Shown piece by piece: positions 39,098 through 43,212 of a stretch of DNA of 58,000 nt (within the stretch, counting starts at the first letter, position 1; the number at the start of each line of letters is the position of its first letter). Source of the DNA: an uncultured Bacteroidales bacterium (lineage in GTDB: Bacteria > Bacteroidota > Bacteroidia > Bacteroidales > CHK158-818); assembly GCA_949300615.1 (NCBI GenBank), contig CASGEW010000007.1, forward strand, positions 1-58,000, in the 5' to 3' direction. A program made the position numbers and the translations under genes. The notes under the pieces are model-generated. The model was not told the DNA's origin and made no database searches. It was given only the letters and a program-made list of their open reading frames with translations.

Positions 39098-39664
39098 TCA
39101 TTTCTGGGGAGCGATTATCATCGCCAAAAACTTAACGGTTTTGCCATCGAGCGCTTTCATGCCATGCGGCAGCGACGAGTCGAAATAGATGCTGTCGCCC
39201 GTCTCCAAAATCAACTCCTTGCCGTTGATCGAAAGCATCATGCGCCCCTCTATCATCATATTGAACTCCTGACCGGGATGGGTATTCAAATGAATCTCCG
39301 TATTTTCCGGTTTGGGATCTACCGTAACCAAAAACGGATCGGCCAGACGGTTCATAAAACCGGCAGCCAACGACTGGTATTTATAGGCTTTTACCCGCTC
39401 TACGGCGGCTCCTTTATCCTTGCGGGTGAGGAAATAGGCATTCATACGGGGTTCGTCGCCAAACATCAGGGTAGAGAGCTCGATGTTGTAGCGTTTGGCT
39501 ATCCGGTACAGGAGGCTGACCGAAATATCGACCGTTCCCGACTCCAAAGCGATGTATTCGGCTTCGGACACTCCGCAGACCTCTGCCATCTGGGCTGTTG
39601 TTATATCCAACACGTCGCGCAGCCCTATCAACCGCTGGGCTATCTGTTTTATCTGTTCGTTCAT
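39098..39664 (-). CDS. XRE-family transcriptional regulator with C-terminal cupin
   Basis: A 188-residue one-component regulator. I place the start at the ATG at 39662-39664 ([15 protein letters not shown]) because a TAACTTTG promoter box (39685-39692) lies between it and the farther upstream ATG at 39703. The helix-turn-helix covers about residues 18-62 ([20 protein letters not shown] and [13 protein letters not shown]). The cupin covers about 110-185, with [16 protein letters not shown] and [10 protein letters not shown]. Such proteins bind a small ligand in the cupin. The acyl-CoA synthetase follows directly, so the pair is probably self-regulated. Confidence 0.88.
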
Positions 39665-39684
39665 AATGATACTGTTTTGATGGA

Positions 39685-39692
39685 CAAAGTTA
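39685..39692 (-). promoter_or_regulatory. Candidate -7 box of the XRE-cupin operon
   Basis: Minus-strand TAACTTTG matches TAnnTTTG, 20 bp before the chosen start; no clear -33 box. Confidence 0.4.
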
Positions 39693-39739
39693 CAAAAATC
39701 CATGGAATAACCTCGCGGAAGATGCAGATAAGTCTGCTG

Positions 39740-39772
39740 AATTAAAAAATAAACCGTTCATAATAGAACGGT
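39740..39772 (-). terminator. Intrinsic terminator of the nuclease pair
   Basis: Stem ACCGTTC (39753-39759) / GAACGGT (39766-39772), 6-nt loop. On the minus strand it is followed by TTATTTTTT. It lies 37 bp after the PD-(D/E)XK gene and isolates the insert from the XRE operon. Confidence 0.75.
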
Positions 39773-39808
39773 ATTATCAAAAATAATATAAAAGAAGAAA
39801 CAATGATT

Positions 39809-40693
39809 TTACATATTAAGATATCTTTGGTACAAATACTTTATCCATTCTTTTTGTTTGGTAGAAGTAAAATACAGACTCATCGTTTCAAATAAACTCT
39901 CATACGTCAAATCTATAAAACTATCTTTCCCTTTTTGCGAAAGCAATGCCTTATATTCAGGTATTGCATATTGATGAAAATGTGTATTCCCTTGTGGATA
40001 GAGATGAATATGATGAAAATGTTGTATATCCCCCCTATCAACCATAGAATATCCTAATAAATGATTTCGCCATATTTGACGTAAATGATGTGCTTTTATA
40101 AACATCTCTATATCTAAATCAGCTATGAAATAGCCTGATTTGATTGTCATTTTCCGATATAGGCCATTGATATCTTTTATATCTTCTTTTTCTTTTTCCT
40201 TTATTGAATAACTGTTTTCTGTATATTTTACTTCTATCCCAATCGCTCCTCTTTGGTTATCATCATCCATATATTCAACATACACATCAAAAGATGTACC
40301 ATCATTCAAATACTTAGATCTATCCGTATATCCGGCAAATTCTATGCAAATGCGGCAAATATCAGAGATGCCGCCTCCTATAATTTTATTAAACAACAAT
40401 TTTGTATTACACAAATCTTCTTCCATGGGAACAAATATGTTGAATGGTATATGCTCACTACGCAACATATTTGAAAACAAAGCCGAGGTTCCAAATTTTT
40501 CAACTTTTTTCAATATCAAATCTCTATATATATCACAAAATATCAACCCGCGTTGGGATGCATCTGGACTAAGTATGACTTGTGGATTCTTTTCCTCATA
40601 ATGATCATTTAGAACATTATCACGAAAAGCGAATTGATGTGCTCTGGCTTTTGCCTTAAAAGCATCATCGTGGCGATATATTTTATCTTTCAT
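39809..40693 (-). CDS. PD-(D/E)XK-type putative restriction endonuclease
   Basis: A 294-residue protein with no signal peptide or membrane segment. The nuclease core is visible as Asp136 in TSFDVYVEY followed by Glu154-x-Lys156 in GIEVKYTE, the classic PD-(D/E)XK arrangement. It resembles the stand-alone putative restriction endonucleases named after P. gingivalis PGN_0703 (recalled, not searched). N-terminal residues 1-30 are basic. The gene is strikingly AT-rich (about 28-30% G+C in lines I counted, against 45% or more in neighbouring core genes). It lies 9 bp after the GIY-YIG gene in one transcript. There is no methyltransferase nearby. Function as defence, transposition-linked or repair nuclease is open. 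Confidence 0.7.
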   Translation of the reverse strand: MKDKIYRHDDAFKAKARAHQFAFRDNVLNDHYEEKNPQVILSPDASQRGLIFCDIYRDLILKKVEKFGTSALFSNMLRSEHIPFNIFVPMEEDLCNTKLLFNKIIGGGISDICRICIEFAGYTDRSKYLNDGTSFDVYVEYMDDDNQRGAIGIEVKYTENSYSIKEKEKEDIKDINGLYRKMTIKSGYFIADLDIEMFIKAHHLRQIWRNHLLGYSMVDRGDIQHFHHIHLYPQGNTHFHQYAIPEYKALLSQKGKDSFIDLTYESLFETMSLYFTSTKQKEWIKYLYQRYLNM

Positions 40694-40702
40694 ATTTAAT
40701 AA

Positions 40703-41473
40703 TTAATTATCCCTCACTGAAATATATCTAACTGACGATCCTCTCCCAAAAGGATAATCACTTACATCTTTATTGAGATAGGGTGAATCTGTAACCAATG
40801 TACCATAAAAACAACATCTTTCTTTTTTAAAACAAACTTTCTTTTCTTCATCATAGAGAGTCCATTCATAACCATCAACCCTAAGAACAGACCGCACAAT
40901 TCCTCGATATACACCTAATACGTAATCTATTTGGGCTGCACGTTGCTTTGCTATCTTCCAATATTGACGCGTTTTTTCATAAATATTTATTCGTTTATAT
41001 ACACCATAAGCTTTTGTATCATCAAAACTTTGATTCAAACAAACCAATAACAAATGATTTTTGGAATTTACCTCAATTTTTTCACAATCGTAAATAGCTC
41101 TGATTTCATCTACGGTTTTAATGCCCTCATCCCATTGATGATATCCTCTTGCTATATTGGTCAATACTTGTTCCGTATTAAATTTTGGATATGTGAGAAA
41201 ATCTATAAGGACGGATTCTATTTGAAAAGCTTCTTTTTTTGACAGTTTATGGCGAAGTATAAAATGTTCAACCTTTGATCCAGAAGCAATAATATCACGA
41301 ATCAAATTAAGTTTCAGAGATTCTTCATCTTCTTGAAGAGCAGCCTCACAATGTTGGAAGACCCTATTTCCACTGCCCTTTCCAATATAGAATATCTTAT
41401 TATTTCGAGGGTCTATCAACGAATAAACATAAAAGCCAAGTTCTTCTATGCATTTATTACTGAATTTATTCAT
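40703..41473 (-). CDS. GIY-YIG nuclease (LEM-3-like) with unknown C-terminal domain
   Basis: A 256-residue protein. The GIY-YIG nuclease domain occupies about residues 13-110: YVYSLIDP as the GIY part, FYIGKGSGNRVFQH as the YIG part with Arg37 and His41, and the metal-binding Glu86 in AFQIESVLID, with Asn106 in TNIARGYH. This layout is that of the LEM-3/Ankle1-like subgroup. The C-terminal half (about 125-256) contains IDYVLGVYRGIVRSVL and a Cys-containing end; it recalls PUA/EVE-like folds but I cannot assign it. AT-rich like its partner. It has its own promoter (41497-41528) and is followed 9 bp later by the PD-(D/E)XK gene. Confidence 0.72.
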   Translation of the reverse strand: MNKFSNKCIEELGFYVYSLIDPRNNKIFYIGKGSGNRVFQHCEAALQEDEESLKLNLIRDIIASGSKVEHFILRHKLSKKEAFQIESVLIDFLTYPKFNTEQVLTNIARGYHQWDEGIKTVDEIRAIYDCEKIEVNSKNHLLLVCLNQSFDDTKAYGVYKRINIYEKTRQYWKIAKQRAAQIDYVLGVYRGIVRSVLRVDGYEWTLYDEEKKVCFKKERCCFYGTLVTDSPYLNKDVSDYPFGRGSSVRYISVRDN

Positions 41474-41496
41474 AAATCAATATTATCTTTTATAAA

Positions 41497-41528
41497 CAAA
41501 AGTATTTCATTCTGCCTATTCAAACAAA
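41497..41528 (-). promoter_or_regulatory. Promoter of the nuclease pair
   Basis: Minus-strand TTTG (41525-41528) and TACTTTTG (41497-41504), 20-bp spacing, 23 bp before the GIY-YIG ATG. Good consensus match, so the inserted genes carry their own Bacteroides-type promoter. Confidence 0.65.
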
Positions 41529-41928
41529 AATATTTAAATTTAAAATACAACTTACACACTTCCCACATGAATTATTTAAACAAAATTCGAAACAACATAT
41601 AAGAAACAATATGTTTTCCTAATCTTTTTCCTAAAATTAAATTCTTCTCCCTGCATCTTTTATGAGACAAAGAGAGGAGCTCAGTATCACAAAAACAGAC
41701 AAATCATAAATCCGCAGAGCATAGGAATCTCCTTATAACAAATTTTGTTTCCCGGCCTGTCAATCCTCTGAGAGGATTAGGTTTTAGCAGACACTCCATC
41801 AACAATCTCAATATCAAAAATTTGGGCTCAAATTAACACAAAAAAACATACACAAACACCCAAGCGTCCAGCAACAAAAACAAAAAAAAGTAGTATCTTC
41901 GCTCGTCGCATCAATACGTTATACAAGA
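41529..41928. other. 400-bp AT-rich non-coding stretch between the nuclease pair and murF
   Basis: No supported gene. It contains a short palindrome AATCCTCTGAGAGGATT (41762-41778) and a degenerate plus-strand -7-like TATCTTCG (41894-41901), 27 bp before the murF GTG, which may be the murF promoter. The left part has the same AT-rich composition as the nuclease genes, so it probably belongs to the insert. No direct repeats matching the other edge near 39740 were noticed. Confidence 0.5.
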
Positions 41929-43212
41929 GTGGATATACAAGCGTTATACCAACTATTCCGACAGCATCCGTCCATTACGACCGACAGCCGCAACTGTCTG
42001 CCCGGATCGATCTTTTTCGCCTTGAAGGGTGAAAACTTCGACGGAAACAAGTTTGCATTACAGGCGTTCGAACAGGGTTGCGCCTACGCGGTAATAGATA
42101 ACCCCGCCTACAAGGCGAACGACCGTTGCATCGTAACCGAGAACTGCTTGCAGACGTTGCAACAACTGGCCAACTACCACCGGAACGTACTGAAAACGCC
42201 CGTCATCGCCATTACCGGAACAAACGGCAAGACAACTACGAAAGAGCTGACGGCTACGACCCTGGGCTGCAAGTACCGGGTTCTCTATACGCAAGGGAAT
42301 TTCAACAACCACATCGGCGTACCGCTTACCTTGCTCAAACTGACCGAACAACACCAAATGGCCATCATCGAAATGGGTGCCAACCACCCGGGAGAGATAC
42401 GGACATTGGTGGAAATTGCTGAACCGGATTACGGCGTAATTACCAACGTGGCACGTGCCCACCTCGAAGGATTCGGATCGTTCGAAGGGGTGATCCGCAC
42501 CAAAAGCGAATTGTACGATTTTTTGCGGCAAAACGGCAAACACGTCTTTGTCAATCGCAACAATCCTTACCTATACCCCCGAACTGCGGGGATGGAACGC
42601 ACCGAATACGGGACACAACCGGGTGCTTCGCTTTTCGGCCAACTGACAGATTGCAACCCATATCTCTCGTTCTGGTTCGAGCATCGCGGCGAACGGTTTG
42701 AGGTCCATACCCATTTAATCGGGAATTACAACCTGGAAAATGCGTTGGCTGCCATCTGCATCGCAACCTACTTCGAGATAGATGGCCAAGCGATTGCCCG
42801 GGCCATCAGCGCATACACCCCCCAGAACAGGCGCTCGCAACTGCAAAAAGGTGAACGGAACACGCTCATTATCGACGCTTACAACGCCAATCCCACCAGT
42901 ATGGCGGCAGCCATCTCGAACTTCGCACAAATGGAGGTCGCTCCCAAAGCGCTGTTGTTGGGCGACATGAGAGAACTGGGTACGGAAAGCGCGGCGGAAC
43001 ACCAAAAGATTGTCGATTTAATCAGGTCGTTCCAGTTCGACCGCGTATATCTGGCCGGTTCGGAATTTTCGGCCACAGCTCACGGATTACCCTCATTCCC
43101 CGATACCGACAGCCTGCTGGATTTTTTAAAGGCGGAGCCGCTAAGCGGCTACCACATCCTGATAAAGGGGTCGAACTCCATGCACATGGAGAGATGTATT
43201 GATTTACTTTGA
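41929..43212 (+). CDS. murF: UDP-N-acetylmuramoyl-tripeptide-D-alanyl-D-alanine ligase
   Basis: A 427-residue cytoplasmic Mur ligase that adds D-Ala-D-Ala to the peptidoglycan precursor. GTG at 41929 is chosen because it gives the family N-terminus (MDIQALYQLFRQHPSITTDS) and no ATG is available. Motifs: ITTDSRNCLPGSIFFALKG (UDP-binding domain), ATP P-loop AITGTNGKTTTKEL, IIEMGANHPGEI, NVARAHLEGFGS, and the C-terminal DAYNANPTSM and LGDMRELG. The M24 peptidase follows 23 bp downstream. Confidence 0.95.
   Translation: MDIQALYQLFRQHPSITTDSRNCLPGSIFFALKGENFDGNKFALQAFEQGCAYAVIDNPAYKANDRCIVTENCLQTLQQLANYHRNVLKTPVIAITGTNGKTTTKELTATTLGCKYRVLYTQGNFNNHIGVPLTLLKLTEQHQMAIIEMGANHPGEIRTLVEIAEPDYGVITNVARAHLEGFGSFEGVIRTKSELYDFLRQNGKHVFVNRNNPYLYPRTAGMERTEYGTQPGASLFGQLTDCNPYLSFWFEHRGERFEVHTHLIGNYNLENALAAICIATYFEIDGQAIARAISAYTPQNRRSQLQKGERNTLIIDAYNANPTSMAAAISNFAQMEVAPKALLLGDMRELGTESAAEHQKIVDLIRSFQFDRVYLAGSEFSATAHGLPSFPDTDSLLDFLKAEPLSGYHILIKGSNSMHMERCIDLL

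What the first reader, a model, noticed from the sequence alone, without database searches (positions are those of the whole stretch)
39740..41528. Two-nuclease cassette (GIY-YIG plus PD-(D/E)XK) in an AT-rich insert with its own promoter and terminator
Two genes 9 bp apart encode nucleases of unrelated folds, both with their catalytic residues intact (GIY-YIG Arg37/Glu86; PD-(D/E)XK Asp136/Glu154/Lys156). Composition is far more AT-rich than the flanking core genes. The unit is bounded by a consensus promoter (41497-41528) and a terminator (39740-39772). No methyltransferase, helicase or immunity gene is present, so it is not a known restriction-modification layout. It may be a compact defence module, for example one acting on modified or recombining DNA, or a selfish element. 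The GIY-YIG protein has an unassigned C-terminal half that could be the recognition domain.
Basis: partly seen in the sequence, partly recalled or inferred. Interest (0 to 1): 0.72.

Follow-up and report, generated by a model that had tools for sequence, protein, structure and literature searches.

The report
CMoRE-type restriction gene beside unrelated nuclease
An AT-rich insert in a Bacteroidales genome carries a recognisable member of a known anti-phage enzyme family that cuts DNA with modified cytosines, next to an unrelated restriction-like nuclease; the pair is a local arrangement of one lineage and not a new conserved two-gene system.

Summary
In detail: two genes 9 bp apart at 41473-40703 and 40693-39809 (minus strand), ~31% GC against ~50% in the flanks, with a Bacteroidetes-type promoter and a hairpin terminator. 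A sister species has the empty site. The interpretation changes. The GIY-YIG protein is a full-length homologue of PD-T4-3/CMoRE, a structurally solved single-gene type IV restriction enzyme that cuts 5hmC/glucosyl-5hmC phage DNA. It keeps the GIYxY-YIG motif, catalytic Arg37/Glu86, a four-acid loop (EDEE) and the Tyr aligned with Tyr127, whose backbone contacts 5hmC. Its 'unassigned C-terminal half' is the known modification-sensing domain. The second protein is a PDDEXK_13/REase-ARP family nuclease with an intact D136/E154/K156 motif and unknown substrate. The two families do not form a conserved unit: among 80 best CMoRE loci, 79 viral CMoRE loci and 74 PDDEXK_13-only loci, they are neighbours only at this one site in two sister genomes, one with a frameshifted GIY gene. 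Most likely: a horizontally gained CMoRE gene beside a second, independently spreading restriction-like nuclease; ordinary in kind.

The parts
40703..41473 (-). GIY-YIG protein, 256 aa, CMoRE/PD-T4-3 family: N-terminal nuclease domain (Y15, Y17, Y29, R37, acid loop 48-51, E86) and C-terminal modification-sensing domain (from about residue 104; Y128)
   Evidence: PADLOC PD-T4-3 7.2e-43; PDB 9u7u 2.5e-27; Foldseek top four hits are CMoRE chains
39809..40693 (-). PDDEXK_13 / REase-ARP family nuclease, 294 aa, catalytic D136, E154, K156 intact; substrate unknown
   Evidence: PF20796 1.6e-59, PF22558 9.2e-26; invariant residues
41497..41528 (-). Bacteroidetes-type promoter TTTG-N20-TACTTTTG upstream of the GIY-YIG gene
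   Evidence: pattern match
39753..39772 (-). Terminator-like hairpin ACCGTTC-loop-GAACGGT followed by a T-rich tail
   Evidence: fold z-score -4.0 and scan
39699..41871 (.). Interval absent from sister genome G002 (about 215 bp there, about 2.2 kb here)
   Evidence: L034 alignment
39098..39703 (-). Flank: HTH-cupin regulator, conserved in G002, not part of the insert
41929..43212 (+). Flank: murF, conserved in G002, not part of the insert

Best explanation
This Candidatus Gallibacteroides lineage carries a single-gene type IV (modification-dependent) restriction enzyme of the CMoRE/PD-T4-3 family, probably gained by transfer, and the same spot holds an independently spreading PDDEXK_13 restriction-like nuclease, probably on the same transcript. 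The GIY-YIG protein most likely oligomerises, uses its C-terminal domain to recognise modified cytosines (5hmC, glucosylated 5hmC or a related mark) in incoming phage DNA, and cuts nearby with its N-terminal GIY-YIG domain, while an acidic loop keeps it off unmodified host DNA. No methyltransferase or immunity gene is needed because the target mark is absent from the host. Shown here: homology over both domains, intact motifs, gene order, empty site in a sister, lack of conserved pairing. Inferred from the E. coli enzymes: substrate, cleavage and anti-phage effect. Inferred with less support: the PDDEXK_13 protein is also a restriction nuclease that acts on its own; its substrate is unknown.
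For: PADLOC PD-T4-3 7.2e-43. PDB CMoRE structures 9u7u/9u75 at 2.5e-27 and 5.1e-27 by sequence and as the only Foldseek hits with E<0.001. CMoRE biochemistry and distinctive features from PMC12923530: GIYxY-YIG, Arg/Glu, acid loop, Tyr127; all have counterparts (Y15, Y17, Y29, R37, E86, E48-E51, Y128). Full-length colinear alignment with E. coli, Bosea and Serratia-phage homologues. PD-T4-3 restricts Tevenvirinae phages in a native E. coli host (PMC12409345). Gain by transfer: 79-80% identity to genes at other sites in other Bacteroidales, whereas the SpoU methylase beside the 79% copy is only 50% identical to its best match in the window's genome; empty site in G002; low GC. Independence of the two genes: of 80 genome CMoRE loci only L071, the sister genome, has PDDEXK_13 in the stretch held; 79 viral CMoRE loci have none, and 74 PDDEXK_13-only loci have no GIY relative in the stretch held; in 393 genomes of the order PDDEXK_13 is in 51 and full-length PD-T4-3 in 7, adjacent only in G000 and G001. 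Solo copies of the closest relatives: GIY 53% between aroC-like and purN-like genes (L024), PDDEXK 59% after a fucosidase-like gene (L025).
Against: No activity was measured; identity to the E. coli homologue is about 35-38%, so the exact modification recognised may differ. The 9 bp spacing and shared promoter and terminator would also fit functional coupling in this lineage. Both genes look under purifying selection between G000 and G001 (dN/dS about 0.13-0.14 on few differences), and PDDEXK is kept open in G001 where the GIY gene is frameshifted.
Confidence: 0.78

Rival explanations
1. The two nucleases are one functional two-component defence system: the CMoRE-like protein recognises and nicks or cuts modified DNA and the PDDEXK_13 protein completes the destruction.
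For: 9 bp spacing, one promoter and one terminator; both genes appear under purifying selection; CMoRE relatives are sometimes followed by other nuclease-like genes (DUF2779 with weak Cas4-like match in 4 of 80 loci, a GIY-YIG-like gene in L070).
Against: No second lineage shows this pairing; E. coli CMoRE works alone (PMC12923530); the sister genome keeps PDDEXK with a broken GIY gene.
Confidence: 0.1
2. The insert is a selfish or homing element that uses the GIY-YIG nuclease to spread.
For: Mobile distribution, low GC, insert absent in a sister species; some phage relatives are annotated 'putative homing nuclease'.
Against: The protein has the sensing domain and motifs of a restriction enzyme; relatives sit at many unrelated sites with no recurrent target; no clear duplication at the borders.
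Confidence: 0.04
3. The GIY-YIG protein is a housekeeping repair or recombination nuclease of the LEM-3/ANKLE1 kind and not a defence enzyme.
For: Pfam names the domain LEM-3_GIY-YIG (8.8e-15); animal LEM-3/ANKLE1 cut branched DNA (titles and abstracts).
Against: Much stronger match to PD-T4-3; sparse, scattered distribution (6 of 99 and 14 of 393 genomes, partial matches included); gene absent in a sister species and broken in another.
Confidence: 0.05

Closest known systems
CMoRE / PD-T4-3 type IV restriction endonuclease (E. coli APEC O1 and O157:H7; PDB 9u7u, 9u75, 9u7z)
   Same: Two-domain order, GIYxY-YIG motif, catalytic Arg/Glu, acidic loop, aligned Tyr127, no methyltransferase partner, similar length (256 aa against 262-residue crystal chains).
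   Different: About 35-38% identical to E. coli homologues; extra residues near 97-103 and 150-160; followed 9 bp downstream by a PDDEXK_13 gene, whereas published CMoRE systems are single-gene.
PDDEXK_13 (PF20796) / REase-ARP (PF22558) family
   Same: Full-length match with invariant D131, D136, E154, K156 and conserved Q206/R209.
   Different: No member with a solved structure found by sequence and no PADLOC match for any member scanned; relatives have varied neighbours and no dominant partner, here it follows CMoRE.
MspJI, PvuRts1I and other modification-dependent restriction enzymes
   Same: Same working principle: a modification-sensing domain plus a nuclease domain (PMC12923530 and general knowledge).
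   Different: Different nuclease and sensing folds (general knowledge); not members of the same family.

Membership tests
CMoRE / PD-T4-3 | Sequence relation to PD-T4-3 over nuclease and sensing domains | tested here: met
   PADLOC 7.2e-43 over 2-200; PDB 9u7u 2.5e-27 over 2-204; colinear to the C-terminus in alignment A2
CMoRE / PD-T4-3 | GIYxY-YIG motif with a third tyrosine | tested here: met
   Y15, Y17, Y29 invariant in the aligned relatives
CMoRE / PD-T4-3 | Catalytic Arg and Glu of GIY-YIG | tested here: met
   R37 and E86 invariant
CMoRE / PD-T4-3 | Negatively charged inhibitory loop between helices 2 and 3 | tested here: met
   EDEE (48-51) aligned with DDDE of CMoRE; these positions vary across relatives
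CMoRE / PD-T4-3 | Sensing-domain residue aligned with Tyr127, which contacts 5hmC by its main-chain oxygen | tested here: met
   Y128 in the window protein, Tyr in 56 of 58; a main-chain contact cannot be proved from residue identity
CMoRE / PD-T4-3 | Same fold of both domains | tested here: met
   Only Foldseek hits below 0.001 are four CMoRE chains, prob 1.00, aligned over both domains; global TM is low (about 0.35) and rmsd high, which I attribute to domain placement in the model
CMoRE / PD-T4-3 | Cleaves 5hmC/glucosyl-5hmC DNA but not plain or 5mC DNA; restricts T-even phages | not testable with these tools
   needs purified protein or a plating test
CMoRE / PD-T4-3 | Single-component system | tested here: inconclusive
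   a second nuclease gene lies 9 bp downstream, but the pairing is not conserved in relatives
PDDEXK_13 (PF20796) | Full-length profile match above the curated cut-off | tested here: met
   202 bits against cut-off 27, profile 2-289 of 290
PDDEXK_13 (PF20796) | PD-(D/E)XK catalytic motif | tested here: met
   D136/E154/K156 invariant in 13 members
PDDEXK_13 (PF20796) | PD-(D/E)XK fold | tested here: inconclusive
   model mean pLDDT 62; top hits are restriction enzymes BstEII, EcoO109I, MspI but with E > 0.001
Conserved two-gene GIY-YIG + PD-(D/E)XK defence system | Recurrent adjacency of the two families in unrelated genomes | tested here: not met
   adjacent only in G000 and G001, the same site in sister genomes
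Type II restriction-modification system | Cognate DNA methyltransferase next to the nuclease | tested here: not met
   genes beside the pair are an HTH-cupin regulator, an AMP-binding ligase and MurF; no methyltransferase among them; the rest of the genome was not searched

The most novel reading that the evidence does not exclude
In this lineage a CMoRE-type modified-cytosine restriction enzyme and a PDDEXK_13 nuclease work together as a two-nuclease anti-phage operon, the PDDEXK_13 protein adding a second activity (its own modification range, or destruction of the fragments). It would be a two-component variant of a system described only as single-gene, and one of several in which CMoRE teams with different nucleases.
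Probability: 0.1. Interest if true: 0.45.

Novelty: new member of a known kind. Interest (0 to 1): 0.25.

Why it matters
It places a recently solved type IV restriction family in Bacteroidales as a mobile accessory gene, which suggests that phages of these bacteria carry modified cytosines or similar marks. It also points to an untested, scattered family (PDDEXK_13) as a candidate solo restriction enzyme. The pair itself is not a new system.

Tried and rejected
Obligate pair: rejected by neighbour counts. Homing or selfish element: no clear target-site duplication, integrase or recurrent site. LEM-3/ANKLE1 repair nuclease: weaker match than CMoRE and sparse distribution. A fixed partner of PDDEXK_13 was looked for and none dominated; only small recurrent neighbours, such as a WYL-like regulator (judged from sequence) in four loci. 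A PDB relative of PDDEXK_13 was not found by sequence, and the fold comparison of its low-confidence model was inconclusive. Literature on PF20796, PF22558 and 'REase-ARP' was searched without result in the open library, so what ARP stands for stays open. Viral-contig scans for PDDEXK_13 gave very few relatives.

Full report
Observation. GC is 0.29-0.33 over the insert and 0.47-0.55 in the flanks. A Bacteroidetes-type promoter (TTTG-N20-TAnnTTTG) lies at 41497-41528 (-) and a hairpin with a T-rich tail at 39772-39753 (-), z = -4.0. The flanks are core-type genes: an HTH-cupin regulator and an AMP-binding ligase on one side, murF on the other.

Origin of the insert. Both carry the pair at the same site. 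A third genome of the genus, G002, has the same two flanks but only about 215 bp between them in place of about 2.2 kb; no relative of either gene was found in its assembly, which is about 90% complete. That is gain in one branch or loss in the other. The low GC and the 79-80% protein identity to copies in other Bacteroidales at other sites, against 50% for the one neighbouring protein compared (a SpoU methylase), favour gain by transfer. No clear target-site duplication was seen. In G001 the GIY gene has a 2-bp insertion in an A-run that breaks the frame; this may be real decay or an assembly error.

What the GIY-YIG protein is. PADLOC gives PD-T4-3 at 7.2e-43 and PHROGs family 5356 at 3e-46. 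The best PDB relatives are the crystal structures of PD-T4-3, renamed CMoRE (9u7u 2.5e-27, 9u75 5.1e-27). An AlphaFold2 model from 54 relatives (mean pLDDT 87) has only CMoRE chains as hits below E = 0.001, aligned over both domains; the global TM-score is low, which I attribute to the relative placement of the two domains. CMoRE is a type IV restriction enzyme that cuts 5hmC and glucosyl-5hmC DNA and protects E. coli against T-even phages (PMC12923530); PD-T4-3 also restricts Tevenvirinae phages in a native E. coli host (PMC12409345). The features reported as distinctive are present: the third tyrosine (Y15, Y17, Y29), R37 and E86, four consecutive acids in the loop (EDEE 48-51), and Y128 aligned with Tyr127, whose backbone oxygen contacts 5hmC. 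That this particular protein cuts modified DNA is an inference from homology at about 35-38% identity.

What the second protein is. It matches PF20796 PDDEXK_13 over its whole length (1.6e-59) and PF22558 REase-ARP (9.2e-26). D131, D136, E154 and K156 are invariant in 13 members. No relative has a solved structure by sequence; a low-confidence model gives only weak similarity to type II restriction enzymes. Function is inferred: a restriction-like nuclease, substrate unknown.

Are they a system? In the 80 best CMoRE loci from a collection of 84,980 species genomes, only the sister genome has PDDEXK_13 within the stretch held. In 79 viral-contig CMoRE loci there is none, and 74 PDDEXK_13-only loci (some of them overlapping fetches of one place) have no GIY relative in the stretch held, which for many is only about 1.5 kb on each side. 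In 393 genomes of the order, PDDEXK_13 occurs in 51 and full-length PD-T4-3 in 7; four of these seven also have a PDDEXK_13 match, and only the two sisters have them side by side. The closest other relatives stand alone: the 53% GIY copy between aroC-like and purN-like genes, the 59% PDDEXK copy after a fucosidase-like gene (names judged from sequence). CMoRE neighbours elsewhere include genes that look like mnmE and conjugative-element integrases, and a SpoU methylase.

Most likely mechanism. The GIY-YIG protein surveys incoming DNA for modified cytosines with its C-terminal domain and cuts with its N-terminal domain, while the acid loop limits damage to host DNA; no immunity gene is required. 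The neighbour is probably a separate restriction-like nuclease sharing the transcript. Both appear under purifying selection between the two sister genomes on a small number of differences (dN/dS about 0.13-0.14), so both are probably used.

Verdict. A sound observation of an ordinary kind: a new member of a known family beside an unrelated nuclease. Interest is limited to the spread of CMoRE in Bacteroidales and to the untested PDDEXK_13 family.

Noticed in passing
L031:1721-2074 (+), L196:1170-1493 (-), L099:3462-4970 (+): The CMoRE C-terminal sensing domain also occurs without the GIY-YIG part: as small stand-alone proteins (118 and 108 aa) and at the N-terminus of a 503-aa protein with a long Ala/Glu/Lys-rich stretch and a repeat-containing C-terminal part (PD-T4-3 positions 140-254, 5.9e-12), which lies directly before a CMoRE gene. 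The CMoRE paper reported no homologues of this domain; Pfam finds no family in the two small proteins.
   Followed up: partly
L102:5724-7193, L103:2135-3595, L106:1687-3210, L111:5925-7451 (+): Four of 80 CMoRE loci are followed directly by a DUF2779 gene (three scanned, with weak Cas4-like matches; the fourth by similarity); possibly a recurrent pairing worth a count.
   Followed up: partly
L070:5789-6313 (+): The CMoRE copy 80% identical to the window's is followed within a few bases by a gene whose sequence looks like another GIY-YIG protein (175 aa); Pfam and PADLOC give no match.
   Followed up: partly
L023 near 4017 (G001:C193); window 41016: The sister genome's GIY gene has two extra A in an A-run, breaking the frame after about residue 159; real decay, phase variation or assembly error.
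   Followed up: no
L160, L170, L171, L174: Four PDDEXK_13 relatives have a gene that looks like a WYL-type transcription regulator 5-9 bp away (judged from sequence only).
   Followed up: no
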